A stretch of 64,000 nucleotides of DNA from Okeania sp. KiyG1 (GTDB lineage Bacteria; Cyanobacteriota; Cyanobacteriia; Cyanobacteriales; Microcoleaceae): the NCBI RefSeq assembly GCF_014132355.1, contig NZ_BLZO01000094.1, positions 62,001-126,000 of the forward strand, in the 5' to 3' direction. This document shows positions 1,893 through 64,000 of this stretch, in pieces. Both the position numbers and the translations under genes were made by a program. Within the stretch, counting starts at the first letter, position 1. Each line of letters begins with the position of its first letter. The notes beneath the pieces are model-generated. The model made no database searches and was not told the DNA's origin. It was given only the letters and a program-made list of their open reading frames with translations.

Positions 1893-1938
1893 ATAAAAAA
1901 TGTTATGGCATTACTCATAAAGATGAGGTACATTTACG

Positions 1939-3793: not shown

Positions 3794-5320
3794 ATGACAA
3801 ATTTACCATTGTATTTACCAAGGCCAAAAAAAGCAGCAGGCACTTATCTAAGAATAGTGTCAATAAATGACGTTTACGACATCAAAAATTATCCCTATGT
3901 CGAAACAGTTATTCGATGCCTAAAACAGACAGCAGAAGATGCGATAGTGGTGGCCGTCCTCAGTGGCGATTTTCTTTCCCCTTGTTTACTAACGTCGTTG
4001 GATGGTGGTAAATCAATGTTGGATGTTTTAAAAGTAGTAGATATTGATTACATTTGCTTTGGGAATCATGAATTCGATGTCAATCTAGATGTGCTGCAAG
4101 AACGATTCAAAACTTACCAAGGTAAATGTCTAAATAGTAATATTCCTAACTTACCAATTGTTGGCCCAGAAGGCAATCCTCTGCCAAAATATGACATTAT
4201 AGAAGTAGGAAACCACAGAGTTGTATTTGCTGGATTTTGCACTGATAACACCGATATTTTCAGACCTGGAACAAACTTAGCCATTGAACCTATTTTTGAT
4301 GCCTTAAAATCTACCTGGTCTGAATGTGCAGAGGCAGCAACTATACTCATTCCTCTAACCCACCAAACCATTGTAGAAGACAGACAACTAGCGACGCAGA
4401 TTGAGCAAGATGACCAACTCAAAGGCAAAATCCCAGTAATTATCGGTGGCCATGAACACGAAATCTACATTGAAGAAATTGCTCAAAGCTTTATTGTCAA
4501 AGCTGGTTCTGATGCGAAAAATGTCATAGTGACAGATGTGTGGTGGTCTACCGACGGTCAAGTGAATACTGCAGTTCATCTGTTGCCAGTTAGCCACTTC
4601 GATGCAGACCCCAATGCACAAATGTTCGTGGAAACAACACAAAAATTTCTGGGTTCTCTGATGGATGTAGAAATTTTTCAGGTCAAAGAAACCATGTCCT
4701 CAAAAAGAACCCGATATCAGCCGGAAAAAGTGGCATCAACTTTATGCTCTTATATCAAGAGAAGCTTACAAAATATAGATATTGTCATGCTTCAGGGAGG
4801 ATGTGTCAGAGGTCAGGGCGACTATGAACAAGGTACGTCTTTTACTTATGGCGATCTAATGGAGGAACTGCCGTTTGAAACAGAAATTGCAACTATCCAA
4901 ATACCAGGAAAAGTATTACAGGAGGCGATCGCTATTACCCGCAGTACCCCAGAGCAGGAAGCACCGAATTATTTACACACAGATATAGATGTCGTTATTG
5001 AAGACTACCCCAGTTTGAAAATAGTTAGTATTAACCACGAAGCTTTCGACCCCAACAAAATGTATAATGTGGGAATTTATCAATTTTTGCTGACAGGTTT
5101 AAACGAAATTAAACCACTTCTTGATTACATCAATGCTTATAGCAAAGTACCTCCTTTAGAACAGTGTCTTCCTGCTAAAAACTTAATCGTGGAAACTTGT
5201 ATGAAAGATGCGTGGCGAATTTTAGTTAATTTTGATGAATGGGATAGCAACCACGATGGGTACATTTCTCATACAGAACTCGAACAAGCAGTAAAAAAAA
5301 GCATTTGCATATCTGGATAA
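3794..5320 (+). CDS. 5'-nucleotidase-like metallophosphoesterase with C-terminal EF-hand
   Basis: A 508-residue protein with the two domains of the UshA/5'-nucleotidase family. The N-terminal calcineurin-like phosphoesterase domain shows RIVSINDVYDI (about 20-30), SGDF, GNHEFD, a histidine in PLTHQ and IIGGHEHE as metal ligands. The substrate-binding C-terminal domain has GGCVRGQGDY and TYGDLMEELPFE. The NDVY variant replaces the usual NDxHG. It should hydrolyse nucleotide-like phosphoesters, but the exact substrate is unknown. No signal peptide is visible. The end carries one EF-hand loop, DSNHDGYISHTE; the annotated stop follows a run of eight A (5293-5300), after which two more EF-hands continue in another frame (see 5301-5480). 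The intact product would have about 568 residues. Confidence 0.85.
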   Translation: MTNLPLYLPRPKKAAGTYLRIVSINDVYDIKNYPYVETVIRCLKQTAEDAIVVAVLSGDFLSPCLLTSLDGGKSMLDVLKVVDIDYICFGNHEFDVNLDVLQERFKTYQGKCLNSNIPNLPIVGPEGNPLPKYDIIEVGNHRVVFAGFCTDNTDIFRPGTNLAIEPIFDALKSTWSECAEAATILIPLTHQTIVEDRQLATQIEQDDQLKGKIPVIIGGHEHEIYIEEIAQSFIVKAGSDAKNVIVTDVWWSTDGQVNTAVHLLPVSHFDADPNAQMFVETTQKFLGSLMDVEIFQVKETMSSKRTRYQPEKVASTLCSYIKRSLQNIDIVMLQGGCVRGQGDYEQGTSFTYGDLMEELPFETEIATIQIPGKVLQEAIAITRSTPEQEAPNYLHTDIDVVIEDYPSLKIVSINHEAFDPNKMYNVGIYQFLLTGLNEIKPLLDYINAYSKVPPLEQCLPAKNLIVETCMKDAWRILVNFDEWDSNHDGYISHTELEQAVKKSICISG

Positions 5321-44037: not shown

Positions 44038-46332
44038 ATGGCATTTAGAGATATTTTAGCAATGGAAAATCAAGATAACTTTCAAGAAAAACGTTGCTCA
44101 GAACTTTTACTATATTTGGCTTTAAATATAGAAAATTTCCAAATATTACCCAAAATAAAATTAGAAACAGACCTGCCTCAGACAATTATAGATGGGATAA
44201 GAAAGTATTTTTTGACTTATCAATCTGCCTGTGAATATGCTAACCAGATCTTCCTAGAAATTTACCAATCTGGTGCAATAAAAAAATACTGTCAACAAAG
44301 CAAAATAGGCAAAAAATTACCAACCGCTTTTTATATTCATATCTCTGCTTTAGCACAACTTCATCCTTTACTACAACTCTACGAAAATTTAGCTCATCGT
44401 TTATATCTCAAAGCAACTTCTCAGCAGAAAGTTGATGCAAAAACCACCACATTAATTAAATTTAACTTTGATAAACCCACAATTTCTTATCTCCACTATC
44501 CAGACTTCGACACCGACCCTCATCCAGCTTTAAAAACTAGCATTTCCATCAACATGAATAGTGGAAAAGTTGAGTATAGAAACTACCAAAATAGTAAAAA
44601 CCCCCCTGTGCTGCATCGCAAAGAAACCTTTGTGAATACTGACTATCCCCACTACAAAAAATTTGCTAAACTGACCAGTGCTGAAGTGAAATTAGGACTG
44701 TTAGATAATACTCGCTTAATTGGCACTCGCCAAGGATGGTTCACACACCTAAAAAATCATGGAATTGAAATTAAAGACCATCATGTAATTCAAAATACTA
44801 TTGAAATACCAATTCCCAAAATAGAACGCCACAAAGCAGCGATCGTTCGTAAAAAAATTTCTAAACCAGTACGTTTGGGTTTAGAAGCAAATCTCTTTAC
44901 AGAAGGTACAACCTTTTTTGATTATGGTTGTGGTCACGGTGGGGATATTAAACATATTGCTCAAAAAGGTTATCAAAGTGCAGGATGGGACCCCTATTAT
45001 TCGCCCAATAATACTTGTATATCTGCTGATGTTGTCAATCTTGGTTATGTAATTAATGTAATTGAATCTTTAGCAGAACGTAGGGAGGCTTTGATTAAAG
45101 CTTGGGGGTTGACTAAACAGGTTTTAATTGTTTCCGCTATGGTATTAATTAATGACCAGAAAACCAAGAATAAACTTGCTTATGGAGATGGCATAATTAC
45201 AGCTCGTAATACTTTTCAGAAATATTATGAACAGGAAGAATTAAAGTCTTATATTGACCAAGTTTTAAATGTAGATTCTATCCCTATAGATTTGGGTATT
45301 TTCTTGGTATTTAAAGATGAAAAACAGGGGCATAATTTTCGAGCATCTCGATTAAAAACTCGTTTATCTAGACCTAGAATTAACTCCAAAAATCAGCAAT
45401 TTGTAGATTATGAAGAACAGCTTATACCTTTGATGAATTTTATGAGCGATCGCGGTCGTCTTCCGGTCAGAGGAGAAATTGCTGAAGAGGCAGATTTAAT
45501 TGCAGAATTTGGTAGTTTTCGTCGTGCATTTCGAGTAATTCTGCAAGCTACAAATGCTGTAGAATGGGACCAGATAACTGACAAACGTCGCCAAGATTTA
45601 TTAGTATATTTAGCCTTGAGTAAATTTGGCAACCGTCCTAAATTATCCCAATTAGCAACAGTAGTTAAAAATGATATTAAAGCTTTATTTGGTAGTTATA
45701 GCCAAGCTTGTACATTAGCCGATATATTGTTATTTAGTTTGGGTAATTCTCAACTAATTAATAAATGTTGTCAAAATAGTTCTATTGGTTATAAATTTTA
45801 TAATTCTCTGTTAGTTCATGTTTCTGCTGTAGCAAAACTCGATCCGTTGTTACGACTTTATGAAGGTTGTGCTAATCGTACAATTGGTAGATTAAATGAG
45901 GCAACTATCATTAAATTTCATACAAAATTACCGATAATATCCTATTTATTTTATCCCGATTTTGACACAGAAGCTCACCCAGTTTTGCATACAAGTATGC
46001 ACATTGATTTACGAGATTTAAGTGTCAGTTATCAGAGTTATACAAATGAATATAATCCGCCAATTTTACATAGAAAAGATGCTTTAGTAACACCAGATTA
46101 TCCAGACTATGAAAAATTTGCTAAACTCACACAACAAGAAGAAGATAGAGGACTATTAAATGACTGGAAAAATATTCAAAACCGAATTAGTTGGCTCAAA
46201 TGTTTAGAAGAAAATTGTACAGAAATTAAAGGTCATCGTGTTTATTGGCAAACTAATGTTGACCCTTATCGCTTAAAAATATTAAAGTCTGCTCATGCTA
46301 CTAGGAAGCGGGAAAGAAAAAAACAACTATAG
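44038..46332 (+). CDS. DNA phosphorothioation-associated putative methyltransferase (TIGR04096-like)
   Basis: A 764-residue protein. The central domain (about 265-480) is a SAM methyltransferase with FFDYGCGHGGDIKHIAQKGY (about 292-311), GWDPYYSPN, VVNLGYVINVIE, and DGIITARNTFQKYYEQEELK, a run typical of the methyltransferases found beside dnd phosphorothioation genes. It is flanked by two copies of another domain: residues about 17-255 and about 513-755 align throughout (LLLYLAL/LLVYLAL, SYLHYPDFDT/SYLFYPDFDT, NPPVLHRK/NPPILHRK, YKKFAKLT/YEKFAKLT). No dndABCDE genes are in the window. Target and role are unknown; DNA or RNA modification is likely. The first ATG follows a CTAAAAC array directly; ATG 44062 (MENQDN) is an alternative start. 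Confidence 0.82.
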   Translation: MAFRDILAMENQDNFQEKRCSELLLYLALNIENFQILPKIKLETDLPQTIIDGIRKYFLTYQSACEYANQIFLEIYQSGAIKKYCQQSKIGKKLPTAFYIHISALAQLHPLLQLYENLAHRLYLKATSQQKVDAKTTTLIKFNFDKPTISYLHYPDFDTDPHPALKTSISINMNSGKVEYRNYQNSKNPPVLHRKETFVNTDYPHYKKFAKLTSAEVKLGLLDNTRLIGTRQGWFTHLKNHGIEIKDHHVIQNTIEIPIPKIERHKAAIVRKKISKPVRLGLEANLFTEGTTFFDYGCGHGGDIKHIAQKGYQSAGWDPYYSPNNTCISADVVNLGYVINVIESLAERREALIKAWGLTKQVLIVSAMVLINDQKTKNKLAYGDGIITARNTFQKYYEQEELKSYIDQVLNVDSIPIDLGIFLVFKDEKQGHNFRASRLKTRLSRPRINSKNQQFVDYEEQLIPLMNFMSDRGRLPVRGEIAEEADLIAEFGSFRRAFRVILQATNAVEWDQITDKRRQDLLVYLALSKFGNRPKLSQLATVVKNDIKALFGSYSQACTLADILLFSLGNSQLINKCCQNSSIGYKFYNSLLVHVSAVAKLDPLLRLYEGCANRTIGRLNEATIIKFHTKLPIISYLFYPDFDTEAHPVLHTSMHIDLRDLSVSYQSYTNEYNPPILHRKDALVTPDYPDYEKFAKLTQQEEDRGLLNDWKNIQNRISWLKCLEENCTEIKGHRVYWQTNVDPYRLKILKSAHATRKRERKKQL

Positions 46333-47013: not shown

Positions 47014-47589
47014 ATGAATAAATTATTTGAAAAAATAAATACCCAAGTAACGATTTTAGGAAGTCTTATTGCTATCCTTTGGATTGTACAAATTATTAAT
47101 TTTGAATTTTTAGCAGGAAAATTGAACTATTATGGCGGAATTCATCCTCAAAGTTCTACAGGACTTACGAGTATTTTTTTAGCTCCATTTTTGCATGGTA
47201 GTTATGGTCACTTAATGGCTAATATTCCCCCATTAATTATTCTCGGTTGGTTAATCATGTTACGGGGAGTTCGTGATTTTTTCTTTGTGAGTATCGTTAC
47301 TATAATAGTTAGTGGTTTAGGTATTTGGTATTTCGGTGCGCCTAATTCTGTTCATATTGGTGCAAGTGGATTAGTTTTTGGTTATTTTGGGTTTTTGCTA
47401 CTCCGAAGTTTATTTGACTTCAGTGTTTTATCAGTAATATTCGCCTTAACTGCTGGTTTTCTTTACAGTGGTTTAATCTGGGGTATTTTGCCTTCCGATC
47501 CTAATGTCTCTTGGGAAGCACACTTATTTGGTTTTCTTGGTGGGATATTGGCAGCTCAACTTTTGGGTAAACGTAAACAAAATAGTTAA
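47014..47589 (+). CDS. Rhomboid-family intramembrane serine protease
   Basis: A 191-residue polytopic membrane protein with about six transmembrane helices. The catalytic serine is in HIGASGLVFGYFG (S118 in GASG) and the paired histidine in SWEAHLFGFLGGILA (H170); the oxyanion-side motif HGSYGHLMANIPPLI also fits. Rhomboids cut substrate helices within the membrane; substrates in cyanobacteria are mostly unknown. Full length for the short six-helix class. It stands alone between repeat-filled gaps. Start ATG 47014 has only a weak AGAAAG upstream. Confidence 0.93.
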   Translation: MNKLFEKINTQVTILGSLIAILWIVQIINFEFLAGKLNYYGGIHPQSSTGLTSIFLAPFLHGSYGHLMANIPPLIILGWLIMLRGVRDFFFVSIVTIIVSGLGIWYFGAPNSVHIGASGLVFGYFGFLLLRSLFDFSVLSVIFALTAGFLYSGLIWGILPSDPNVSWEAHLFGFLGGILAAQLLGKRKQNS

Positions 47590-49153: not shown

Positions 49154-50215
49154 TCAAAAGTAAGAAAAAGATGAAATTGCTGGTAAAAATTCCCCAATCC
49201 AATTCCCAACTAACCATAACATATAACCCAAAACCAAAACTGTATAAATAATACTAAGAGGAGCATAAATAGCTAAAATGGCTTGGTCAGATGTTTTTTC
49301 AGGCGAAGGTTGACGGCGCAATAAATCAAAATAAAATTCGAGCGATCGCCTCCTCAAATTATTAATTCCTGTCATGGCCACCAACAAGTAATAACCATCA
49401 AAAGCATTTAATGGATTGAGATTTAACACCACCGTTACCAGAGCAGCACTCATCAATAAATAACTATTTTGCTGCATCAAACTCTGGGGAGGAGAAGCTA
49501 ATAATAACCACAAAGCTAACGCCCAAATAACTATTTGAACTATTACCCCCGCAGCTACAACTAAAACTCTTTGTTTCCGTTTAACTAAAGAATATTGGTC
49601 GGAAGTATTGGTGTACATTCCCGGCAGAAAACACATAAATAATAAACCAATTTCCGGTATAACACCCCCGAAATGTTTCAGAGTAAAAGCATGACCTAAC
49701 TCATGGAGAAAAATCACCAACATAGTCGCAAAACCTAACTTTAATAAATTAGTAGGAGCAGTAGTAAAATCTCCCCAAACTTGTTGATGAGCAGAAACAA
49801 TATCTGTGGCATAAGCTAACCACAAAAAAACTGTTTGACCGAGGAAAAAACAGAGTAAAAACCCAAAACCCGCCGTCCAAATCCAACGAAGTTTATCTAT
49901 ACTTTCTGTTAACCATTCATCAGGTTTGAACAGAGGGATTTTGAAAAATAATATTTGCGCCAAAGAGAATTTTTTCGGCGGTGGTTCCGTACCTTCTAAC
50001 ATACCTGTTGCTGCCAATTTTTGTAATAGTTGTTGAATGTCTTGGAGGGTTAGATCGTATTTATTAGTAATAGCAGGTATTGGTCTTTTTCCTAATAGAC
50101 AAATGACATTTTTATCAATATTATCTACTTGGAGAAACGTTGGATATTCAGGATTGCGTAATATCCAATAACCATCTGGATGTTGAATCCAATGCACCTC
50201 TGATTTTAGTTGCAT
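49154..50215 (-). CDS. M50-family membrane metalloprotease with N-terminal PqqD-like domain
   Basis: A 353-residue protein. The first 75 residues (HWIQHPDGYWILRNPEYPTF, TLQDIQQLLQKLAATGML) resemble a PqqD-like or winged-helix binding module. About six transmembrane helices follow. The zinc site is HELGH (residues 171-175) in helix two and the second motif LNLNPLNAFDGYYLL supplies the aspartate ligand, as in site-2 proteases. This architecture is typical of the M50 peptidases next to HlyD-type secretion genes and RiPP-like clusters. None is seen here on the same strand, but the giant subtilase gene starts 1.65 kb away on the other strand. Substrate unknown. Confidence 0.88.
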   Translation of the reverse strand: MQLKSEVHWIQHPDGYWILRNPEYPTFLQVDNIDKNVICLLGKRPIPAITNKYDLTLQDIQQLLQKLAATGMLEGTEPPPKKFSLAQILFFKIPLFKPDEWLTESIDKLRWIWTAGFGFLLCFFLGQTVFLWLAYATDIVSAHQQVWGDFTTAPTNLLKLGFATMLVIFLHELGHAFTLKHFGGVIPEIGLLFMCFLPGMYTNTSDQYSLVKRKQRVLVVAAGVIVQIVIWALALWLLLASPPQSLMQQNSYLLMSAALVTVVLNLNPLNAFDGYYLLVAMTGINNLRRRSLEFYFDLLRRQPSPEKTSDQAILAIYAPLSIIYTVLVLGYMLWLVGNWIGEFLPAISSFSYF

Positions 50216-51800: not shown

Positions 51801-51868
51801 CAACAGAATAGGCGTGTCACAGAAAAAATATTTAAACAAATGCCAATCAATAATTAGAGGTGCAAATT

Positions 51869-54800
51869 ATGGTATTGTTTTGGAATAAAAAGACTCAACA
51901 AAAACCACAAAAAAAATCTGCCAAAAAGCCAAGAAGTAAAACTTTTATTTTAGAAGAAATTATTAGTCCTGGTGCTTATTGCCCCATACCAATAGATGAC
52001 TCCCTCGTTAACCATCCCATCTTTGGATTATTCACAGAACAAGAATTAATTTCCACGATTTTAGGAACTGACGCTCCTCCAGATATTGCAGATATAGACA
52101 CAGAAATTTTAGTACAAGATTATTGGAAAAAAATCGACCAATACTTTCAAGAAAATCCCAATGAAGCTAATAGTTTTGATTCAGAAGATTTGTCTACTTG
52201 GCCAACCCTAGAAGCACTGATAAATCCAGGACAACCAAGTGTAGAAATACCTGATGTGGGTGGGGCAGTAGATACCTTACCCCCTCCAGTAACGATACCA
52301 GTAGACCCCCCTAGAAATAATCCTGGTAGTGGCACTCAAGGCCCAATTCCAGTAGACCCCCCCAGAAATAATCCCGATAGTGGTACTCAAGACCAAATTA
52401 TTGATACTCCTCAACCACCTACCTTAATTAATTCTATTTCAGACATTACTCTGACACCGCAAATATCCTCTCAAACTATAGATATTTCTCAGGTGTTCGC
52501 TACTCCAGATGGGGGACAACTGAAATATGAAGTCATAAGTGGCAATGGTGAACTTCTCAATATCAACTTAGAAAATAATCAACTATCTATAGAAGCACTA
52601 CCCAAAACAGGGTCAAATCAAATTACAATTCAGGCAACTAATGATGCTGGAGGTGTGGCAGCTCATACTTTTAAGGTTTTCAATAATTATGTTCCACCAG
52701 AGTCGGCGGCAACTATTAATAGTAGTTTAACTGAGTTACAACATATTATTGATGCTAACCCTGATGAATTATTAGCACGTTTGGATACTCCAGAAGCAAA
52801 AACAACTTTGGAAACGTTAATGACTGAGTTAGAATCTAACTTCGGTAATATTGCCAACACTATCCAACAACCAGAAACTCTGACAAAAGCAGGAGTGTCT
52901 CCCGAAGCTGTTGCTACCCTGGAACAACTTTTGGCAAGTGAAGAAGTAGGGGCAACTTTAGGTTTGCCAACTTCTGTGGAGTCAGCTTTGACTTCGGATG
53001 ATTTTCGGACTTGGGATAAGTATTTAGTTAATGCTACGGAAGCTGCTTCTATCCTTTTACCTGATGCTCCTCAAACTAATGTGGCATTTTTGGATTTTGC
53101 GGGAGGACATGGGGAAAATGTGACAGAAGTATTTGAGTCTGTTAACCCCAATGCTGAATATGAACGTTTATCTATTAATAATGGTAATTGGGCAGAACCG
53201 TTGGTGCGGGTTGTGGAGCAGTTAAAGGCGAAGGGCGATCGTGGCGGTTTAGTGAATTTGAGTTTGGACTTGACTGCCATCGACTCGGAAGGTCGGGTTA
53301 CGACTCGTTATGAGTTGACTGCGGAGGAACAGGAGGCCATTCAATTTGCTCGCGAGAATAATGTTTTGTTGGTGGTAGCTGCCGGGAATACTGGCGGTCA
53401 GATGTCTGGTTTAGGCATGGCGGCAGAGAAGTTTGATAATATTATTACTGTGGGGGCGGTGGATCGTTCGAGAGACCGCGCGGACTATTCTGCTTATGAC
53501 TCCGAGGGAGTTACTCCCCAACTTTCCCTGGTGATGGCACCGGGGGGTGAGTGGGAAAACGACCCCAATGCTTTTGTGGGTACGTCCAGAGCGGCGGGTT
53601 ATGTGACGGCAGCAGCGTCTTTGGTTTGGGGCGCTAATTCGGAGTTGAATTATCAACAGGTGAAGGAGTTGTTGTTGACTACTGCTGATGACTTGGCAGC
53701 TCCGGGTTGGGATGCGGAGACTGGTGTGGGTTTGTTGGATGTTAAGGAAGCGGTGGAACGGGCCAAGGTGACTGAGGCAAAACCGCTGGAGGTGACTGCT
53801 GCGCCAGAGGTGTTGTCTTTTACAGGTGAGGGTCGGGTTAATACTTCGTCTCGCGCTGCTTCTGCGGGAACTGAGGCAGCTATTGAGGAGTTGTGGAGCG
53901 ATCGCCAAAATTTGGTAAAAGATTTGGAGTCTTTGCAGGATGCGGGGAATCCAGATTTGGGTTTGGATGAGTTGAGGGCGCGGGTTGAGGATAAGACAGA
54001 GGCAGCTTTTAAGGAGTTTGGGCGCTTGAGTTCGGATGTAGCGATCGCTTCTGCCAAGGAAAATATGGTTTTGGAGGAGTTGGGGTTTGCGAGTCGGTGG
54101 AATGGAATTGAGCAAGGGCGCTTGCAGAATTTTGAGGTGGTTAAGTTAGCTTTGAAAAATCGTTTGGAGGCGTTGAATGAGGCTAAGGTTGAGTTAGAGA
54201 AGCCTTCTGCGAATGAGAAGTCTTTGAAGAAGGCGATCGGTGAAGTTGAAGAAAAACTGCGCAAGCACAAAGTACCGACTTACCCGGATTACTATTGGTT
54301 GGTAGCAACAAATACCAGTCAAATTCAAGACGAGATTGATTTAATCTCTGAACAAATTTCAGATTATCAAACTAAATACAATAAGAGTAAGAACCCGTGG
54401 AGACCACGCCAAAAACGGGAGATATTTGATAAGTTAAAGACGAGTGCAGAAGAAGTAAAAAGTAAGCTTCAAGAATATTTGAATCTGACCGCACAACAAA
54501 CACGTCTCTCCAAGTCCAGGAATGGAATAGAAAAAGATCGGCAGCTACATAACATTTTGAAACGACGAGCTGCGGCAAAAGCTGACATTGATACTGCTTA
54601 TGGCAATTTGCTAAAGTGGGCAAAAGAATGGAAGGAAAAAAATGGAACTATATGGAAGCACTTTCGTGGAGAAGGATTTCCTCCTATTCCTTTTATATTG
54701 AATCAATATAATAGATTTTCTACTATCTTGACTTACCCTAGTAGTAAAAGAGAAGTTCTTAAAGAGCCGAATGAAAAAATCGATTTTTACGATAAAAGAA

Positions 54801-57800
54801 TCAATAATTGGAATAACATAAATTTTTTGAATGATCATGCGAGGGATGTTGGAGAGCGTGTTAGTGCATTAGATACGAAGCATTTTTGGGAGGAGCAACG
54901 GGCGGCCTTAAAAGACAAGAAGAAAATTGCCGATATTGTTAAACAGCAAAAAATTGAAGCTCTGGAATTGCAAATTGCTCAGACCGAATCCGAATTGAAA
55001 CAGTTGGAAAATCTGTCTGTATATACCGAGCAAGAAGTCAAAGCCGCAGACGATCGCTTAATGGCCATCGAACAGCAGCTAAATACACTTCTGCAAGACA
55101 AAGCATCCGCAGAGCAAAAGCTGCCGGGATATGAGGAAGATTATCGTCGGTTCCAGGAAGCGGGCGAAGAAAAAAATAACATCTCTCAACAAATTCAGAC
55201 ATTAGAAGCACAACAGCGCTCTCTCCAACAGCGGGAACAGAACGAGCGAGCGCAGTTGCGGAATATTGAGGCAGCTCAGTTAGCTGATGAAGCAGCAATT
55301 GTTCGAGCCAAGAATAATATTAATTCGGTTCAACAAAGGTTGCGCTCTCATAGAATACCGATTTACCCGACTTCTTATCGTACTGAGAGTACCACAGCAA
55401 TTCTGGCTGAAATAAAACGTATTAAGGACGAAGTAAGCTATTACGAAGGAAGGAGTAATACAAAAGTAGATATCAATGGCGTGCGTAAATACAGAAAGAT
55501 ATTTCGCCAACTAATACCACCGACTGAGAAAGTGCAAAAAAGTCTGGAAAAGTATTTGGATATCCTCAACAAGCAAAATCGCATTAAAAATGGCGCCTGG
55601 GGAATAGAAGAAGACCGAGAATTATCTCAAGTATTGAGGGAGCGAGCTCGCCAAAAACAAGAAATCGTTCGTTCCTATCAAGATTTGCTCAATTGGGTTG
55701 AAAAGTGGAAAAAGCGAAATAACGAAATATGGCCTGGAAGTAGAAATACAAATGCGAGAAATAAAGAGAGTGCTTACGATAGCGCCATCTCAAATTGGAA
55801 CCGCATTGATAATTTTAGCTATAGAGCTAATTTGGTGACAAATCGCGTTAATGCACTGCAAACCAAACAAAATCTGGAGTCACAACTAGCTTCCGAACGC
55901 AATAAATTGGCATCCTTAGAAAACAATAAGAAGATTGCTGACCCTGTTAGACAACAGGAAATAGAGAGCCTAAAATTGCAAATTGCCCAGACTGAATCAG
56001 AAATAGAACAGTCTCAACAAAATATCGATAGCCTCCTTGAGCAAAAAGCAGTCGTAGAAGAAGACTTGCTGAAATACCAAGATAGCGATCGCCTCCTTGA
56101 GCAAACTCGCCAGCAGTTAGAAACTATTGGCCAACAGTTAGATACCTTGAATGGGAAAAAAGACGAACTGCAAAAGCATAAAGTCGCCCTTGGGGAAATG
56201 CAACAACACCTGGACTCTCTAGCAGGAGGCAAAGCAGCAGCAGCTACCCAAGCACGATTAGAAAAAATCGAGGAGAAACTGAATGAGAGGCGGTCGCAAT
56301 CTACCTCCGCAGAAAGGAAGTTGCAACAATTCCTAGAGACTTCCGGCTATTTCCTACCTACCCGCGAACGGTTGGCGATTATTGACAAGCGAATTAGGGA
56401 GCTAATTACCGAACAGCTAACAGTGCAAACCACTAAATTTGAACTGTCAATGCAACCAGGAGCAGAACAAATTCCAGAGATGGAAGCTATATCGAATCAA
56501 CTGCAAAATTATATAGATGACCTGGAACTAGAATTGCTCTGGATGCAGGTGCAGCGCGATGCTTTGGCACTAACGGTATCTGATTCTCTCGAACGGATGG
56601 CGATCGCCGATGTTAAGGCTGAAATCGAAAAATATAAAGCTACGGTCGGCGAGGCTGACTTGCCGTTGGATCGGTATCTTGATTTCTTAAATGGAATTGA
56701 GGGTAGCGGGGGAAATCTACGGGATGGTTTTGACGATATTAGTGCGTCGTTGCAAAAGGCTAAAACTGAACTGGAGGAAGCCGAGGATATTGTGGTGACT
56801 CTGGGAATACAACAGTTACAGCTAGAGGATGAAGAAATAGCAACTAAGGAGGCTATATCGAAAGCAGAAGAGGAGATTCCACAGACAGAGGAGGCGATCG
56901 CTCAAACTCAGGATAAGATTCAAGAAACTCAAGCATCTTTGGCAGCGTTGCCGACATTAGCGGAAATCCAAATATCTAAAACTCAAAAGCAAGCTGAGAT
57001 AGACGAACGGGAGGAAGCGATCGCTAGTACCAGAGCCCAGATTAACAATATCAGTAGGCAACAATCAATCTATCACTCGCGGATTCGGAGTCGCAATAGC
57101 AGTATCAGCAATTACAGCCGACAAGTCTCTAATTTGTATTCTCATGCCAACTTCTACGAACGACAGCGGCAAACTTACCAAGCAGAAGTAGATCGCTTGA
57201 CCAGAAAGGGCCTTTGGAAGAAAGTAGCTACTTGGCAGGGCGGACGAATTGTCCATAAATGGGTTTACAGGAAAAATCGTGGTCAAAAGTTGGATGACGC
57301 AAAAGCAAAAGTTCAAGATTTTACTAGAGCGCGTGATTCAGCACGCCAGCAAGCGCAATCGCTGAATGCGACAATTTCTCGAATGCGGACGGAAATTTCA
57401 GCCTGGAATCGGCAAATAAGCAGTTTAAACAACCAGCAACGAGGATTCAATAATCAGTTGACAGCAGATCGATCGCAACTCTCGAATTTGCAGCAAGAAT
57501 TGGAGCAACTTGTCAGTCAAGAGAACGCTGTTAATTCCTACACCGAGCAATTGGGAACCCAGAATACTCAACTTTCCCAACTACAACAAAAACTGGATGA
57601 GTTGACAAACAGCTTGCCATTGCTGAAAGAGAAATTGCCAACTATTGCCCAACAGCTTACGGACAAATACCGGGAAAAAGAACTCGTAGAGACTTATTTA
57701 CCCCAGGTGCAAGCAGAAGTCGAACGCTTCCAAGGACGACTGGACTTGTTCCAACGTGCGGATGTCTTGGAGCAGGAGTATCAAACCCAACAGGATGAAT

Positions 57801-60800
57801 GGCAGAAAGCGACGGAGGAACAAAGCACTGCCACCGACGAACTGCTGGCAACTCGTCTGGAAGGGGCAAGCGATCGTGCCAGGTATGCAGCGTTGGAAAC
57901 TTTTGTCGCCGAAGCTCAAGCCAAAATAGACGCTTACGAAGCTGAGAAGGAAGAAATAGACCCATCGCTGAAAAAATTGAGGCAAGAGCAAGAATTAATG
58001 CAAATGCAACTCAGCAACCAGAATCGGCAACTAGAAAGCAATATCGATCTGTATAATTCAACAAATGGGGCTTATATACAGGCAGACCAACAAGCCCAAT
58101 TTCATAACAATAGGATTTGGAAGTGGGAAAACGGAAAATGGAATTATCGCGGGAGGCAGAGACGGCTACGCGATGAATTCAGAGAAGACGCATCCTTATT
58201 GTCCGACAGACTCAATGGACTGTGGGCAACTCGCAACCAGATTGTAGGACGCATCAACGACTTGCAAGAGAAAATGGATGAAAATCAGAGCGAGATTAAC
58301 GGCCTCGTCTCCAAGAAATCTGCACTGAATCGGCAAATTCGGGAACAGGAGAGTTCTCAAACAAAGTGGAAAACCGAGCTTGCCTCTCTGAAAACTATTC
58401 TCGATCCCCTAGAGACAAAGGAACAAGCCCAACGAACAACTTTCGATAACGCCAATACCAAGTTGCAAGACACTTCTGGCAACATCGCCGAGACAATGGA
58501 AGAACAAGTAACAGCATTGCGTCGGTTGATTAGTTTGGGGATGGTGGCATCGGAATCGGATATTGATTTCTTCTCCAGCCAGGTTGAAACTAAGATTAAT
58601 GGGTTTATTGAACAAATTGGCGGACGCGATGGCAAGCTGAAAGAACAAGCAGAACGGTTGCAGCAGTTAATTGACGATCGCCAGAAGGAGTTGGAACAAA
58701 AAGCCGAAAAAGCAAAAGCTATACGCGCTCAAGCAGACTTGTTAGAACAACAGGCTAAGGAGGCTTACGAACGCAGTAAAAAACAAGGACGATTCTATAC
58801 TCGCGAATGGACCAAATATGAATTTCAGCGATTCGGCAACCGCACTCGTCAATTGCGGACGGATGTTTATACCGATCCTGATTACATTGATTACGAAACT
58901 TTCTCCCAACAAGCTTTGGAGTTACGGCAGCAGGCAGATAATATTGAGGATGGAGAATTAATGACCGATGTTGTGGAATTGCTGGAAGAGCAAAACGCAC
59001 ATCTGGACACCTGGCAGGGAGAAAACAAAGCCACTGTTGAAAAATTGGAGAAATGGTTGGAAGAGGCGATCGCTGCTTTGAGTCCGCTGCGGGAGAAGCA
59101 AGAGTTGGAAACTCGTGAAAAACTAATTCGCAATGATATTCGACTGAAGGCGCTGGAATCTCAGAAGGGATTGGAACAAGCAGCAGCGGAGGCTTTGGAA
59201 ACAGATTCCATTCTATCTTCTGTTAAATTGAGCGATCGGGCTACCGAAGATTTGCAAAATCTCGCCCAGACTTGGGTCAAGGATTGGCAGTCTGGCAACC
59301 AGATGACGAAAAAGTTGGGTGATAAACAAAAGCAGCAGTCTCAGTCTGTGGATGAGTTGATTGAGGATATTCAGGAGATATTAGCCGATCCTCACGGGGA
59401 ATATCTGCGTGGCGGGGCGAATTTGCGGGATGCTCTCACTATTCTGGGAGTTGTCGCTCCTCGTGCTGACCAATATGCGATTGGTAGCGTTAAAGAGGTA
59501 GATGTTGAGACTGTTAAAGAGGTAGATATTGAGACTAATGAAAGCGCCACTGAAAGGGACAACTGGGTTAGTAATATTGTCAATGCTGCCGCCAACGTGC
59601 AAAGAATTGTGGCACCAGAAGAAACGAGTCAACCTGATGCAAGCGATGCTAACAGCGAAAACTGGACTTCAAGCATTTTTAATACTGTAAATGCTGCTGC
59701 CAATGCGCAAAGAAATGTGACACCAGAAGAAACAAGTCAACCTGAGGCAAGCGTCACTGATACGGAAGAAACCGTAGCAGAAGCAGCACAGTTTGGGCGG
59801 GTTCGCAGCGTCACAAACACCGAACAGGCTGTAGAAGGACTGGATTTGCGCGTAGAGCATTACACCGAGTTAGGAGAGGAACTCGCACCGATCGCCAAGC
59901 GTTATGAAGAACGGGCTAAAACAGTAGAAAAGTACGTCGAGCTTTGGCAGCGCTTGAAAAAAGCTGAGTCTTTAATTGGGCGAGCGAATGGGCTTTACGA
60001 GGAATTGAAGCCTTCTAATGAGCGGTTGATCAGCTTGAACAACCAAGCTGATGAGAAAGAGAAAAAGGCAAGAAGGCTTGACAGAATAGCTAATAAAGCA
60101 GGCAAAAATTCCAATCGCCGAGCAATTTTGAATTCGCAGAGCCAACGTTTTAAAAATGAAGTCGATGCCCTGCGAGCAGGAGCAACTCGACTTGATCAAG
60201 ACATCAATAACATACCCTTAGATGCCCGCGAGCTGCGAGAAAAAGGATTTTCAGAGTTAACGAGCGTTATCTCTGACACGCGCACTGAAGCATTGAGAGC
60301 AAGAGAGAACGGCGATGCCAGCAATTTGAGTTCGACTCGCTCTAGCTTAATTTCTATAAAACAGTCATGGCTGGTAAACGGCTTATCCGACAGAATGAAT
60401 CAGCAGTTCGTCGATGCGATCGCTGAAGTTGAAGAGGTACTAGAAAAACTGCTTCGGAAGAAAGAAGAATCTCTCCAACAGTTGCCAGAAGTAATGCTAG
60501 CGGAGTCGGACTATAAACAACAACTACAGCAAGCAAAAGCCGCCCTAGCCCAAGCAGAAGGTAAGGCAAAGGCTGCTGTGGATACGATTAACTGGTACGA
60601 GACACAAATTGACGACCACCGCAAGCAAAGCAAAAGGAAAGGGTGGATCTGGTCAGATGAAGAAGATTTTCTTCACGTCGATCACCACTCGCTCATCGTT
60701 CAAAACTACCAGAAAATTCTCAACGGGCGAAAACGTGCAACTCCTGACACCGAGGAAAATCTCGGTTTGCGTCAGGTAGCGATAAACAATTTGGCTGAAG

Positions 60801-63800
60801 CGGAACGCTGGCGTGCAGAAGTTGCTCGCTTGTCAGAAGTGGTCGCCCAAGAAGAGGAAGCTGCGGATGCTGCTGCGGGGGCACGATATGCAAGTAAAGA
60901 GTTTCGCAATTTTGCCGAACAGTTGCAAGTACGGGAGGAATATATTCCCTCTTACGAACAACAAGGCGATCGCCTCGAAGATTTAGTCGAAACTTTGAAA
61001 CCGCAACGAGCGGAAGCGATGGCCGAAGCTCAAAAAGCTGCCAACAAGGTCGAAAGTAGTTGGCAGGAGTACGAGGACGCGGCAGCAAATTACCAGAAAG
61101 CGATCGCCGAAGTACTGGAACGGCGGGGAACAGTTAACCAACAAGCGGTGGAACTCCAGCATTTGATGGCCGAAGCAGAACGGGAGCTAGAACGGCAAAG
61201 CGTGGCCTTGGCAACGGAACTGGAACAGGGACTATCGCTGAAAGATGCGGTCCATACTGCTTACCAGGAAACTGTCGGCAAAATTCAACAACTCGAATCC
61301 GAAGGCAGCACCGACGGTTTGACCGAATTAGAAACCAAAAAAGCCCAGTTAGAAAAAACCCTGCACCTGCTCACCAATAAAGCTGCCGTGCTGACTTCCC
61401 AACAAACCGCCCTCACCCAGAGGCGCACCCTACTAGCAGCACAAAACGAAGTAATTTGGGCAGAACAACGGCTCGTCGATGCCTATATCCAAGACCCAGA
61501 CGACGATTTCAGCAACCTGGAAGACCAATTAAAAGATGCCCGCGAAGTCCTAGCAGAAGCCCAACGTCTGGCAGAACAAGCAGCTAAAGCTTCAGAAGCA
61601 TTGGGCGAACATTTACAGGTGCTGCAATCGGATTTAGAAGTCCAGAATCAGGAGCATCTCGACGAACTCCAGAAGCATCGCGACACCTTCAAGGAATTAA
61701 TCGAGAAGGTGGAAATCTACGATAACCTTGCTGGGGAAGCAGCGCAACAGCAGCAGAGAATTAACGATCTGGAGCGGGACATTATTCAGGAGTTGGAAAA
61801 AGCTATAGATAGCGGCAATACAGAAGCTCAGAAATTGCTCGAAGCAGTTCGGAATCGCGACTTTTTTGCTGCTGCCAATATTTACAAGCGCGATTACCAA
61901 GACCTCGCTCTGGAGGAGGGAGGCGATCATTTTCACCGCTTGTGGCGTAAATATCGCGAGGAACAACTAGATTATCGGGAGAAACAGAGAGAAGCCCTAC
62001 AGGAAACTGTCGAGAACCAGGAGATAAGGCTGGCAGCAGAAGCAACTCTGGCAACTCTGGAGGATGAAAAAGAGATCGCCCAAGAGCAACTAAACGATAC
62101 CCTGGAAAAACTGAACGATGCCCAAGAGGACCAAGAACGGTTGCAGCAAGAGTTAGCGATCGCTCAAGTCCGGGTAGATGAAACGGAACGGTTACGGGCA
62201 CAAACGGAGCAGACCATCGTCCAGTTGGTAGCCTTGGAGCAGATGAATCTAGCCCAAGCCCAGTTAGAGCAGGAGATTGCTAAGGCTCGTCAGCAGGACA
62301 TGGATAAAGCAGTGCGCGATCGGCTCCTCCGAGAGCAACGGGAATTGGAGCGGGAACGTCAGGCTACTATTGCTGAAATAGAGTTAATTAAGCAGTTGCA
62401 AGCTGAAGATGGCCTGCGTCTGTCATTGAATCAAATGCGGGGTATTTTGGGCCAATCTGGTTTGGCAGCAACAGATGATGCAGACGAGTTGGAAAGCCAG
62501 TTGGCGGGTTTGCAATCGCACTTGGGAAGTACGGAAGCGCAACTAGCAGGAGTGCTAGAAGGTTTTGAAAAGTTGGAAGCCGAACAACTTGACGACTTCC
62601 CCGACGAGCTTAAGACTTTGTTGGACAATGCCAAGAGCGATATTAACGATGCTTTGCAAGGTAAGGAAGCGGCGACGGTTCAGACTAACTTGCTGCGAGC
62701 AGTCGAGGGTCTGATAGGGCAGATGACGTACTACCAGATCCAAATGGCCATGATTACACAAGATGATGAGGAAGATCGCGATCTCCTGATCGATCTGATG
62801 GAAAGTTCGGACGAGAATATGGAGCGTTTGCAACAAGCAGGTCTGAAAGCAGATATTTTGGAAGAAGAGAAGCAAATTCTTCTACCAGATTACCTAGCTT
62901 CTCTAAATAAAGTGCTGTATGCCGAGCAAGCGTCAGATATTTCTAAATCTCTAGCGAAACAGTCGCGGGCAGCGATCCAGCAGATTATTCAGAAACGGAT
63001 CGAAAGGCGCGAAGCAGCTAAGAAGAGTTTTTGGCGAAAGGTGTTGGGTATATTTTCCCAGATAATCAGCATTCTTACTGCAATCGCAGGACTTGCAGCC
63101 ATCGTTTTTCCAGCGCTAGCTCCTGTGATGATCGGTTTGAGCGCTGTCGGGGCTGGTATTAATACCATCCAAGCTGCTGTCAATGGCGATTGGATAGGGG
63201 CAATAGTCAATGGTGTCATGGGAGTTGCTAACTTAGTTACAGCAGGATTGAGCAAGGCTCTCAATGCGGTGAAAAATGCTTGTGCGAGCGCCTGCCAAAC
63301 TGTTTGGGGCATGAGTCAGGCAAAAGCCCAAAAACTTCTCACTATTCTCAACACATCGAAGGAAGTCCTACCCGGCACTGTTGATGGTATCCGTAATATT
63401 GCGGATGATAAGGAGATTCTGGGTATCGTTCAAATTTTAGGCAGTCTGGCAACAGCAATTACTGAGCCGAGTGCGTTAGGAAATTTAACTAAAACTACTT
63501 TATACAACCAATTTGGCAAAGGCTCGTTTATGGCCGACCTGATTTTTAATGGGTTCAAAACCTTAAAAAAAGCTCCCGAAGCCATTTATAAGAGCATCGA
63601 ATACATTGATAAAGGCGACCTATTTAACGGTATTACAACAATACTAGGCACTGCTTTCTCTTTGGGTGAAGACCTAACAAAAGGTGTGGCTGACAATATA
63701 TTTTCTAACTTGTTTGATGTCTTGGGCGCGGTAAATAGCACTGCAGTTACAGTTAACAACCGATTTATCGAGCAAGGCGGTGTCACTGGTTTGCTAGCAG

Positions 63801-64000
63801 GGATAGGAGAAATTGCCAGCGCTTGGAACGATCCGATTGATACTTTTGTTAATTATTTGGGCACCCAAGTTAATCTACCTGAAACGGTTGGTAAGTATGT
63901 GTCAAAAACGGTAGATGCTCTCTCGGTAGCACCGCAAAAGATAAGTGCTGGAATTGAAGCCATACAAAACGGAGATTGGGTAGATGGTATTGGCAATATA
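51869..64000 (+). CDS. Giant subtilase / coiled-coil protein, 3' partial (at least 4,044 codons)
   Basis: One uninterrupted frame from ATG 51869 (AGAGG nine bases upstream) to the window end. No signal peptide; the start is Lys-rich. Order: unknown N-terminal region (1-120); Pro-rich linker with a repeated VDPPRNNPxSGTQ (about 150-180); cadherin-like/Ig-like domain (about 190-275); helical linker; subtilase S8 domain (about 403-630) with AFLDFAGGHGENV (D409, H414), VVAAGNTGG (N507) and FVGTSRAAGYV (S573); then about 3,000 residues of Glu/Gln/Lys/Leu-rich coiled coil (about 650-3720), with a 360-residue internal duplication (about 796-1150 and 1154-1510) and Trp-rich breaks; then a hydrophobic Gly/Ala region (3725 on) with GDWIGAIVNG and NGDWVDGIGN. 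Codon use and HIP1 sites match a resident gene. Cysteines are nearly absent (residues 38, 3805 and 3809 noticed). I recognise no named family for the whole protein; self-processing toxin, effector or structural filament are all possible. Confidence 0.9.
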   Translation, partial: MVLFWNKKTQQKPQKKSAKKPRSKTFILEEIISPGAYCPIPIDDSLVNHPIFGLFTEQELISTILGTDAPPDIADIDTEILVQDYWKKIDQYFQENPNEANSFDSEDLSTWPTLEALINPGQPSVEIPDVGGAVDTLPPPVTIPVDPPRNNPGSGTQGPIPVDPPRNNPDSGTQDQIIDTPQPPTLINSISDITLTPQISSQTIDISQVFATPDGGQLKYEVISGNGELLNINLENNQLSIEALPKTGSNQITIQATNDAGGVAAHTFKVFNNYVPPESAATINSSLTELQHIIDANPDELLARLDTPEAKTTLETLMTELESNFGNIANTIQQPETLTKAGVSPEAVATLEQLLASEEVGATLGLPTSVESALTSDDFRTWDKYLVNATEAASILLPDAPQTNVAFLDFAGGHGENVTEVFESVNPNAEYERLSINNGNWAEPLVRVVEQLKAKGDRGGLVNLSLDLTAIDSEGRVTTRYELTAEEQEAIQFARENNVLLVVAAGNTGGQMSGLGMAAEKFDNIITVGAVDRSRDRADYSAYDSEGVTPQLSLVMAPGGEWENDPNAFVGTSRAAGYVTAAASLVWGANSELNYQQVKELLLTTADDLAAPGWDAETGVGLLDVKEAVERAKVTEAKPLEVTAAPEVLSFTGEGRVNTSSRAASAGTEAAIEELWSDRQNLVKDLESLQDAGNPDLGLDELRARVEDKTEAAFKEFGRLSSDVAIASAKENMVLEELGFASRWNGIEQGRLQNFEVVKLALKNRLEALNEAKVELEKPSANEKSLKKAIGEVEEKLRKHKVPTYPDYYWLVATNTSQIQDEIDLISEQISDYQTKYNKSKNPWRPRQKREIFDKLKTSAEEVKSKLQEYLNLTAQQTRLSKSRNGIEKDRQLHNILKRRAAAKADIDTAYGNLLKWAKEWKEKNGTIWKHFRGEGFPPIPFILNQYNRFSTILTYPSSKREVLKEPNEKIDFYDKRINNWNNINFLNDHARDVGERVSALDTKHFWEEQRAALKDKKKIADIVKQQKIEALELQIAQTESELKQLENLSVYTEQEVKAADDRLMAIEQQLNTLLQDKASAEQKLPGYEEDYRRFQEAGEEKNNISQQIQTLEAQQRSLQQREQNERAQLRNIEAAQLADEAAIVRAKNNINSVQQRLRSHRIPIYPTSYRTESTTAILAEIKRIKDEVSYYEGRSNTKVDINGVRKYRKIFRQLIPPTEKVQKSLEKYLDILNKQNRIKNGAWGIEEDRELSQVLRERARQKQEIVRSYQDLLNWVEKWKKRNNEIWPGSRNTNARNKESAYDSAISNWNRIDNFSYRANLVTNRVNALQTKQNLESQLASERNKLASLENNKKIADPVRQQEIESLKLQIAQTESEIEQSQQNIDSLLEQKAVVEEDLLKYQDSDRLLEQTRQQLETIGQQLDTLNGKKDELQKHKVALGEMQQHLDSLAGGKAAAATQARLEKIEEKLNERRSQSTSAERKLQQFLETSGYFLPTRERLAIIDKRIRELITEQLTVQTTKFELSMQPGAEQIPEMEAISNQLQNYIDDLELELLWMQVQRDALALTVSDSLERMAIADVKAEIEKYKATVGEADLPLDRYLDFLNGIEGSGGNLRDGFDDISASLQKAKTELEEAEDIVVTLGIQQLQLEDEEIATKEAISKAEEEIPQTEEAIAQTQDKIQETQASLAALPTLAEIQISKTQKQAEIDEREEAIASTRAQINNISRQQSIYHSRIRSRNSSISNYSRQVSNLYSHANFYERQRQTYQAEVDRLTRKGLWKKVATWQGGRIVHKWVYRKNRGQKLDDAKAKVQDFTRARDSARQQAQSLNATISRMRTEISAWNRQISSLNNQQRGFNNQLTADRSQLSNLQQELEQLVSQENAVNSYTEQLGTQNTQLSQLQQKLDELTNSLPLLKEKLPTIAQQLTDKYREKELVETYLPQVQAEVERFQGRLDLFQRADVLEQEYQTQQDEWQKATEEQSTATDELLATRLEGASDRARYAALETFVAEAQAKIDAYEAEKEEIDPSLKKLRQEQELMQMQLSNQNRQLESNIDLYNSTNGAYIQADQQAQFHNNRIWKWENGKWNYRGRQRRLRDEFREDASLLSDRLNGLWATRNQIVGRINDLQEKMDENQSEINGLVSKKSALNRQIREQESSQTKWKTELASLKTILDPLETKEQAQRTTFDNANTKLQDTSGNIAETMEEQVTALRRLISLGMVASESDIDFFSSQVETKINGFIEQIGGRDGKLKEQAERLQQLIDDRQKELEQKAEKAKAIRAQADLLEQQAKEAYERSKKQGRFYTREWTKYEFQRFGNRTRQLRTDVYTDPDYIDYETFSQQALELRQQADNIEDGELMTDVVELLEEQNAHLDTWQGENKATVEKLEKWLEEAIAALSPLREKQELETREKLIRNDIRLKALESQKGLEQAAAEALETDSILSSVKLSDRATEDLQNLAQTWVKDWQSGNQMTKKLGDKQKQQSQSVDELIEDIQEILADPHGEYLRGGANLRDALTILGVVAPRADQYAIGSVKEVDVETVKEVDIETNESATERDNWVSNIVNAAANVQRIVAPEETSQPDASDANSENWTSSIFNTVNAAANAQRNVTPEETSQPEASVTDTEETVAEAAQFGRVRSVTNTEQAVEGLDLRVEHYTELGEELAPIAKRYEERAKTVEKYVELWQRLKKAESLIGRANGLYEELKPSNERLISLNNQADEKEKKARRLDRIANKAGKNSNRRAILNSQSQRFKNEVDALRAGATRLDQDINNIPLDARELREKGFSELTSVISDTRTEALRARENGDASNLSSTRSSLISIKQSWLVNGLSDRMNQQFVDAIAEVEEVLEKLLRKKEESLQQLPEVMLAESDYKQQLQQAKAALAQAEGKAKAAVDTINWYETQIDDHRKQSKRKGWIWSDEEDFLHVDHHSLIVQNYQKILNGRKRATPDTEENLGLRQVAINNLAEAERWRAEVARLSEVVAQEEEAADAAAGARYASKEFRNFAEQLQVREEYIPSYEQQGDRLEDLVETLKPQRAEAMAEAQKAANKVESSWQEYEDAAANYQKAIAEVLERRGTVNQQAVELQHLMAEAERELERQSVALATELEQGLSLKDAVHTAYQETVGKIQQLESEGSTDGLTELETKKAQLEKTLHLLTNKAAVLTSQQTALTQRRTLLAAQNEVIWAEQRLVDAYIQDPDDDFSNLEDQLKDAREVLAEAQRLAEQAAKASEALGEHLQVLQSDLEVQNQEHLDELQKHRDTFKELIEKVEIYDNLAGEAAQQQQRINDLERDIIQELEKAIDSGNTEAQKLLEAVRNRDFFAAANIYKRDYQDLALEEGGDHFHRLWRKYREEQLDYREKQREALQETVENQEIRLAAEATLATLEDEKEIAQEQLNDTLEKLNDAQEDQERLQQELAIAQVRVDETERLRAQTEQTIVQLVALEQMNLAQAQLEQEIAKARQQDMDKAVRDRLLREQRELERERQATIAEIELIKQLQAEDGLRLSLNQMRGILGQSGLAATDDADELESQLAGLQSHLGSTEAQLAGVLEGFEKLEAEQLDDFPDELKTLLDNAKSDINDALQGKEAATVQTNLLRAVEGLIGQMTYYQIQMAMITQDDEEDRDLLIDLMESSDENMERLQQAGLKADILEEEKQILLPDYLASLNKVLYAEQASDISKSLAKQSRAAIQQIIQKRIERREAAKKSFWRKVLGIFSQIISILTAIAGLAAIVFPALAPVMIGLSAVGAGINTIQAAVNGDWIGAIVNGVMGVANLVTAGLSKALNAVKNACASACQTVWGMSQAKAQKLLTILNTSKEVLPGTVDGIRNIADDKEILGIVQILGSLATAITEPSALGNLTKTTLYNQFGKGSFMADLIFNGFKTLKKAPEAIYKSIEYIDKGDLFNGITTILGTAFSLGEDLTKGVADNIFSNLFDVLGAVNSTAVTVNNRFIEQGGVTGLLAGIGEIASAWNDPIDTFVNYLGTQVNLPETVGKYVSKTVDALSVAPQKISAGIEAIQNGDWVDGIGNI

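What the first reader, a model, noticed from the sequence alone, without database searches (positions are those of the whole stretch)
51869..64000. Giant cytoplasmic-looking subtilase fused to about 3,000 residues of coiled coil
Seen: a single open frame of at least 4,044 codons with a cadherin/Ig-like domain, an S8 protease domain retaining Asp, His, Asn and Ser, a coiled-coil body longer than SMC proteins, and a hydrophobic Gly/Ala C-terminal region still open at the window end. Known: subtilases are normally secreted, with signal and pro-peptides; none is visible here. Inference: an internal protease joined to a long rod and a membrane-active tail could be a self-processed toxin or effector, or a tape-measure-like or scaffold protein. 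I know of no described system with this layout.
Basis: partly seen in the sequence, partly recalled or inferred. Interest (0 to 1): 0.88.

Follow-up and report, generated by a model that had tools for sequence, protein, structure and literature searches.

The report
Giant rod-shaped cyanobacterial toxin carrier
The gene encodes a roughly 4,180-residue protein from a family of giant rod-shaped proteins in filamentous cyanobacteria whose far end is swapped between relatives for different known toxin domains, so it is most likely a long delivery arm of a toxin system used against neighbouring cells.

Summary
The ORF closes just past the window: 4,182 aa from the GTG at 51860, or 4,179 from the ATG at 51869. 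Full-length relatives in other genomes rule out a misassembly. It is one of 30 module-bearing ORFs collected here. Typical layout: leader, Ig-like domain, S8 protease with unusually close Asp and His, ~2,900-residue coil, Gly/Ala hydrophobic module. After that module the C-termini diverge abruptly: RNase A-like CdiA-CT with an overlapping CdiI_2 immunity gene, Ntox24, M23 peptidase, lipases. Trunk ends 89-91% identical carry unrelated tips. Four trunks with a bare 33-38-residue tip are each followed by an RHS/YD-shell gene; one such RHS toxin end is 73% identical to a tip fused to another trunk. A GNAT gene, and less uniformly an RiPP-type M50 protease, are linked. Heads are fused to cell-wall enzymes in smaller relatives, so the protein is probably not cytoplasmic. 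Best reading: a new trunk architecture for polymorphic toxins. The window's own copy has a tip without a recognised toxin domain and no recognisable immunity gene, so its payload is open. Export route and self-cleavage are inferred.

The parts
51860..64000 (+). Giant trunk protein A (last base of the stop codon 408 bases beyond the window; 4,182 aa from GTG, 4,179 from ATG 51869)
51869..51973 (+). K/R-rich N-terminus followed by leader motif FILEEIISPG (F at 51944); the degenerate motif pattern matches 4 places in the 11-Mb genome (paralogues A, B, C, D), reversed-pattern control 0
52427..52699 (+). Ig/cadherin-like beta domain
   Evidence: beta strands, block pLDDT 77-87; alignment; no Pfam hit
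53066..53779 (+). Peptidase S8 domain, Asp412 (53093), His417 (53108), Asn510 (53387), Ser576 (53585); Asp and His only 5 residues apart
53927..62659 (+). Coiled-coil-like body, about 2,900 residues
62708..63817 (+). Conserved coil-end plus Gly/Ala hydrophobic module (alignment A4); TM-like stretches at residues 3735-3753 and 3779-3797
63839..64000 (+). Start of a partial second copy of the hydrophobic module and Pro-rich end (tip class III, shared with C, G048, G164, G176 and, weakly, G243); continues past the window
49154..50215 (-). Divergent neighbour: M50 HExxH intramembrane metalloprotease, closest to RiPP daptide/LiaK models (below cut-off); often linked to S8-head genes; possible processing/export partner

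Best explanation
A is the trunk of a cyanobacterial polymorphic-toxin system. A K/R-rich leader with an FILE-x-I-x-(S/T)-P motif sends the protein out of the cell, possibly with a dedicated M50 protease and, in some loci, an HlyD-type adaptor (inferred from linkage). The head (Ig-like domain plus S8 protease) stays at or near the producer surface and probably cuts the protein itself or its partners (inferred). The ~2,900-residue coil is a rod that spans the gap to a neighbour (inferred). The Gly/Ala hydrophobic module at its end inserts into a target membrane (inferred), and whatever is attached beyond it is delivered: a fused toxin domain, or an RHS/YD-shell protein made from the next gene. 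Shown by sequence: shared trunk, abrupt tip swapping, known toxin tips, one immunity gene overlapping its toxin, an orphan toxin-immunity cassette, an RHS partner restricted to bare-tip trunks, linked GNAT and M50 genes. Not shown: export, self-cleavage, membrane insertion, killing. A itself has the class III tip (partial second hydrophobic copy plus Pro-rich end), which may act as a pore or be a receiver whose payload lies elsewhere.
For: Trunk/tip: G093, G115a, G194a are 89-91% identical over ~1,540 aa (module plus the 1,200 residues before it) with no blastp similarity between tips at E<=1e-3 (lipase E 5e-20; M23 E 1e-12; no Pfam hit); G018/G028 92%, G007/G092 85% (RNase A-like vs Ntox24), G115b/G194b 82% (bare tip plus RHS gene vs long fused tip). 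Toxin tips: PF18431 RNAse_A_bac E 2e-31, matching PDB 5e3e E 4e-21; Ntox24 E 9e-14; PF00151 lipase in B, G093, G182. Immunity: CdiI_2 E 1e-21 overlapping the stop of the RNase A-tipped trunk; the same toxin plus immunity pair as an orphan cassette 2 kb downstream of a trunk with A's tip type. RHS: 4 of 4 bare-tip trunks are followed by an RHS gene at 43-291 bp; its N-terminal 200 aa occurs at E<=1e-10 in 4 of 243 genomes, exactly those four; its toxin end in G068 is 73% identical over 124 aa to the tip fused to trunk G063. Partners: GNAT subfamily 3 copies in the own genome, all downstream of paralogues B and C; present in 11 of 11 family genomes with trunks known from the head search and 6 of the 51 others (Fisher 2e-8, not corrected for kinship). 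M50: 25 of 36 places within 20 kb of a strong S8 head. Export: same kind of leader and head fused to CHAP, M23, GH25 or LysM/LGFP.
Against: A has no recognised toxin domain and no convincing immunity ORF in the 2.4 kb before paralogue B. Only 6 of 20 fused tips reach a Pfam cut-off; G078a and G078b were not scanned but resemble B's lipase tip; the other 12 were scanned without a hit above cut-off. Only one trunk has an identified immunity gene. No TPS, PAAR, LXG or RTX model hit A, and no hydrophobic signal was seen. 14 of 30 loci lack a clear leader motif; three (G182, G078a, G078b) lack the head, and two of these (G182, G078b) end in RTX-like sequence. Only 26 of 81 strong head places have the M50 gene within 20 kb, and no HlyD gene was identified beside the window's M50 gene (not specifically searched). 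GNAT occurs in 6 genomes without a known trunk (one with a coil relic). Lipase and M23 tips would also suit digestive or wall-remodelling exoproteins. The module model is too poor to support membrane insertion (pLDDT 42).
Confidence: 0.8

Rival explanations
1. A surface or matrix protein for wall remodelling or digestion: the head anchors and processes, the coil is a spacer, and the tips are hydrolases acting on polymers or lipids, without a toxin role.
For: The same kind of head carries CHAP, M23, GH25 or LysM/LGFP in smaller proteins; lipase and M23 are 4 of the 6 Pfam-identified tips.
Against: RNase A-like CdiA-CT with overlapping CdiI_2 immunity, Ntox24, an orphan toxin-immunity cassette and RHS partners do not suit digestion; tips differ where trunks are 82-92% identical.
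Confidence: 0.1
2. A Tc-like toxin aimed at grazers (eukaryotes): the giant acts like TcA and the RHS protein as cocoon.
For: Giant plus RHS gene pairs, coil, hydrophobic translocation-like module.
Against: Only 4 of the 30 ORFs were seen with the RHS partner; the three RHS proteins scanned match a teneurin-type YD shell, with no SpvB/TcB models listed; an antibacterial-type immunity gene and an M23 tip occur on the same trunk family.
Confidence: 0.1
3. An intracellular protease-rod used in phage defence or chromosome organisation.
For: Sub-cutoff SMC/Rad50 coil matches; weak PADLOC hits to a generic subtilase and LmuB, E 4e-7 and 2e-4; no hydrophobic signal in the first 160 residues.
Against: No ATPase domain hit in A; heads shared with wall enzymes; toxin tips and an immunity gene in relatives.
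Confidence: 0.03
4. Tape-measure or scaffold protein of a phage or contractile device.
For: Length, coil and hydrophobic end only.
Against: No tail or baseplate domain among the eight window proteins scanned, none noticed by eye in the neighbourhoods read; polymorphic toxin tips.
Confidence: 0.02

Closest known systems
Contact-dependent inhibition CdiA/CdiI (type V)
   Same: Very long protein, variable C-terminal toxin, downstream immunity gene, orphan cassettes; one tip (PF18431) and its immunity (PF18593) are the same families
   Different: Body is coiled-coil-like, not FHA beta-helix (that CdiA feature is recalled); no TPS domain hit in A; an S8 protease head instead; CdiB not searched
Tc toxins / RHS polymorphic toxins
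   Same: YD-shell protein encoded beside a giant partner; toxin at the RHS C-terminus
   Different: RHS matches teneurin-type YD shell, no TcB model listed; the same toxin can be fused directly to the trunk; no TcA family hit in A
Polymorphic toxins with subtilisin-type processing domains (PMC3482391, passages only)
   Same: Protease inside a toxin polypeptide
   Different: There listed with Sec/T2SS or PVC export; 'coiled' has 0 occurrences in the text held (first 300,000 characters)
RiPP M50 maturation proteases (daptide HExxH, YydH/LiaK)
   Same: The linked M50 gene has HExxH and matches both models below cut-off
   Different: Linked to proteins of about 900 to 4,700 residues instead of short peptides

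Membership tests
Polymorphic toxin systems (trunk family as a whole) | Conserved N-terminal/trunk region with variable, unrelated C-terminal toxin domains | tested here: met
Polymorphic toxin systems (trunk family as a whole) | Immunity gene immediately downstream | tested here: inconclusive
   Met for G007 (CdiI_2, overlapping); not identified for the others, most of whose downstream ORFs were read by eye only
Polymorphic toxin systems (trunk family as a whole) | Orphan toxin or toxin-immunity cassettes nearby | tested here: met
   G048 RNase A-like ORF plus CdiI_2; displaced RHS ends in G068 and G052 by eye
Polymorphic toxin systems (the window's copy A) | Recognised toxin domain at the C-terminus | tested here: not met
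   class III tip shared with C, G048, G164, G176, G243
Polymorphic toxin systems (the window's copy A) | Immunity gene directly downstream | tested here: not met
   only short open frames (up to 71 codons) on the + strand; an unknown immunity family would be missed
CDI (CdiA, type V) | TPS domain, FHA repeats, CdiB | tested here: not met
   No such Pfam or NCBIfam hit in A; a CdiB-like gene was not searched
Tc toxin complex | TcA and TcB (SpvB-type) components | tested here: not met
   No TcA hit in A; three RHS genes match TEN_YD-shell, no SpvB listed
Peptidase S8 (subtilase) | Asp, His, Asn, Ser in order, subtilisin fold | tested here: met
   activity not tested; Asp-His spacing of 4-6 residues is unusual
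Type I (RTX) secreted proteins | RTX repeats / C-terminal T1SS signal | tested here: not met
   No RTX hit in A; RTX-type repeat hit only in distant relative G182 and, by eye, G078b

The most novel reading that the evidence does not exclude
A previously undescribed delivery machine: an RiPP-type reader and protease (domains that look PqqD-like by eye, plus M50, with an HlyD adaptor in some loci) recognises the FILE-x-I-x-S/T-P leader and exports giant S8-headed coiled-coil rods. These present interchangeable payloads in two formats, a toxin fused to the rod tip or an RHS cocoon docked onto a short tip, and a dedicated GNAT enzyme modifies rod or toxin, as HlyC-type acyltransferases do for RTX toxins (that parallel is recalled).
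Probability: 0.35. Interest if true: 0.92.

Novelty: new variant of a known kind. Interest (0 to 1): 0.8.

Why it matters
It would add a toxin-delivery architecture to filamentous cyanobacteria; my searches listed no paper on polymorphic toxins of this kind there. It also offers a natural experiment on how one carrier delivers a toxin either fused or as an RHS partner, and it links RiPP-style leader processing to giant proteins.

Tried and rejected
Chimera or misassembly: rejected, intact giant ORFs in other genomes. Tape measure or scaffold: rejected, see rivals. Cytoplasmic protease: disfavoured by wall-enzyme fusions. Phage-defence protein: only weak generic PADLOC hits. Structure of the hydrophobic module: two sequences, pLDDT 42, not used. 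Solved-structure search for the module: 0 matches at E<=1. Immunity ORF between A and B: nothing convincing. NCBIfam on ten proteins (seven tips, two RHS, one M50): no toxin name for the tips. My guesses by eye for further tips (ART-like, REase-like, Ntox44-like, Gly-zipper, a/b hydrolase) got no significant Pfam or NCBIfam support and are not counted. The genome-contig scan returned only 5 loci. A first alignment had a useless second row and was not used. An earlier count said 13 of 19 GNAT places lie within 8 kb of a giant; recounting one search gives 12 of 19. The entry gives the Asp-His spacing as 6-7; one search shows 4-6.

Full report
OBSERVATION. The frame is open from 51860 to the window end. 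The window is part of a 10.98-Mb, 198-contig genome, and the ORF closes at C94:126408, giving 4,182 aa from GTG or 4,179 from the ATG at 51869. The genus is very likely Okeania: G041, listed as same genus, has a contig of the same length (121,709) as the Okeania sp. SIO2C9 contig found. At E<=10 Pfam lists Peptidase_S8 (E 5e-16) and one chance-level hit. Three close paralogues exist. B, 2.4 kb downstream, is intact. C on contig 97 is split into two ORFs. D on contig 82 is a run of partly overlapping ORFs: the first has a canonical S8, LysM and LGFP, and a following one has PA14, LGFP and M23; part of its locus reads as withheld N.

HEAD. In the 25 ORFs aligned (A included) Asp, His, Asn and Ser are kept, with Asp and His only 4-6 residues apart. 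G176 and C (heads in separate ORFs) and G182, G078a, G078b (no head match) are not among them. D has the longer, standard-looking Asp-His stretch. The AlphaFold model of residues 150-690 (6 sequences, mean pLDDT 65) gives a beta domain plus an alpha/beta domain; the 50 Foldseek rows shown are nearly all subtilisin-type proteases (best E 5.6e-9; TM-score about 0.3 by query length).

ROD AND MODULE. Residues ~800-3600 are charge-rich and heptad-like in most blocks (no shuffled control). The coil-end plus Gly/Ala module (alignment A4) was found in 22 of 243 order genomes and 7 of 388 class genomes, four of them already seen in the order and three outside it. It has no match in solved structures at E<=1. 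Its model is unusable.

TIPS. I collected 30 module-bearing ORFs. Twenty have a long fused tip. Six of these pass a Pfam cut-off: lipase PF00151 (B, G093, G182), RNAse_A_bac PF18431 (G007), Ntox24 PF15529 (G092), M23 (G115a). G078a and G078b were not scanned but resemble B's lipase tip. The other twelve were scanned and gave no domain above cut-off; one of them, G063, matches an RHS toxin end. Four (G030, G052, G068, G115b) end 33-38 residues after the module, and six (A, C, G048, G164, G176, G243) carry a partial second module copy or a related end, mostly Pro-rich. Near-identical trunk ends (module plus 1,200 residues before it) carry unrelated tips: G093/G115a/G194a 89-91%, G018/G028 92%, G007/G092 85%. 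Against this, some pairs do share tips or stretches between trunk and toxin (G048/G164 93%; G007/G018 36% over 238 aa; G007/G194b 39% over 246 aa), as expected for modular toxins.

IMMUNITY AND CASSETTES. The G007 trunk ends in the RNase A-like domain (E 2e-31; PDB 5e3e, E 3.6e-21) and overlaps a CdiI_2 gene (E 1e-21). PDB 5E3E is described as the Y. kristensenii CdiA-CT RNase in PMC9086364 (passages seen). G048, whose trunk has A's tip class, has the same toxin plus CdiI_2 as an orphan cassette about 2 kb downstream. No other immunity gene was identified.

RHS PARTNER. The four bare-tip trunks are each followed, 43-291 bp on, by an RHS/YD-shell gene (Pfam run for three of the four; the G030 gene is interrupted by withheld N and was identified by the match). 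The N-terminal 200 aa of that gene occurs at E<=1e-10 in 4 of 243 genomes, those four only. The G068 RHS toxin end is 73% identical over 124 aa (E 1e-61) to the tip fused to trunk G063, so one toxin appears in both formats.

PARTNER GENES. A GNAT subfamily has 3 copies in the own genome at E<=1e-10, two downstream of B and one downstream of C. It lies within 8 kb of 22 of the 30 module ORFs (18; G041, G057, G030 and G022); A is 17.7 kb away with B between. In the family it is present in 11 of 11 genomes with trunks known from the head search and in 6 of the 51 others (the module search did not cover every family genome). Of 19 GNAT places in the family, 12 are within 8 kb of a trunk. The M50 gene at 49154-50215, divergent from A, has relatives in 32 of 62 genomes. 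Of 36 places (40 listed; 4 second pieces or fragments dropped), 25 are within 20 kb and 21 within 5 kb of one of 81 strong head places taken (weaker rows and second pieces left out); conversely only 26 of the 81 head places have an M50 gene within 20 kb. So most M50 places lie near a head, but most heads lack M50 in cis. It matches RiPP daptide/LiaK M50 models below cut-off. Its N-terminus looks PqqD-like by eye only. In four loci read (G048 twice, G002, G052 contig 27) an HlyD-like gene follows the M50 gene (tested with Pfam and NCBIfam for one).

LEADER AND EXPORT. The FILE-x-I-x-(S/T)-P motif after a K/R-rich start is found at 16 of 30 trunk loci (14, C's on its head ORF; G063 and, with the variant FPLE, G007) and in smaller head proteins that carry CHAP, M23, GH25 or LysM/LGFP domains. 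In the own genome the pattern hits only A, B, C and D, with reversed-pattern control 0. Cell-wall cargo argues that the head is exported; the route is inference. A has no hydrophobic signal in its first 160 residues.

MECHANISM AND LIMITS. Best reading: exported, surface-held rods that deliver interchangeable toxins to neighbours. Tip polymorphism, toxin identity, immunity overlap and RHS pairing are shown by sequence. Export, cleavage, insertion and killing are inferred. For A itself the payload is unknown.

PRINT. Searches (open-licence PMC only; listings seen) showed no paper on this architecture. Zhang et al. 2012 (PMC3482391; passages only) lists subtilisin among processing proteases of polymorphic toxins and cyanobacteria among the phyla with PVC-type export, without this trunk in the passages seen.

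Noticed in passing
44038-46332 (+): 764-aa ORF without any Pfam match at E<=0.001.
   Followed up: no
47014-47589 (+): Rhomboid protease gene just upstream of the M50 gene; the same pair is also seen in G041 and G042.
   Followed up: partly
26438-28480 (+): MscS-type channel fused to a DEP domain.
   Followed up: no
36707-38755 (-): C-5 cytosine DNA methylase, 682 aa with a GTG start.
   Followed up: no
52001-64000: G+C 40-49% inside the giant gene against about 34-36% in the 8 kb upstream.
   Followed up: no
L135:4459-10362 (G042): What looks by eye like a head-less coil relic of a trunk gene lies between the M50 gene and a GNAT gene.
   Followed up: partly
L060:16980-17423; by eye also L057, L056, L102, L131, L132, L137, L140: Small clan AA aspartic protease genes recur near trunk or head loci; one was confirmed by family search, the rest by eye. 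Copy number elsewhere not tested.
   Followed up: partly
L097:9143-9478; by eye also L052, L053, L094, L130: XisI-like genes recur near trunk loci; one was confirmed by Pfam, the rest by eye. May be chance, since copy numbers were not tested.
   Followed up: no
L060:14839-15603 and, by eye, ORFs at G022, G053, G164: PEP-CTERM-like exported proteins follow several tips within about 400 bases (Pfam just below cut-off for the one tested); possible accessory genes.
   Followed up: no
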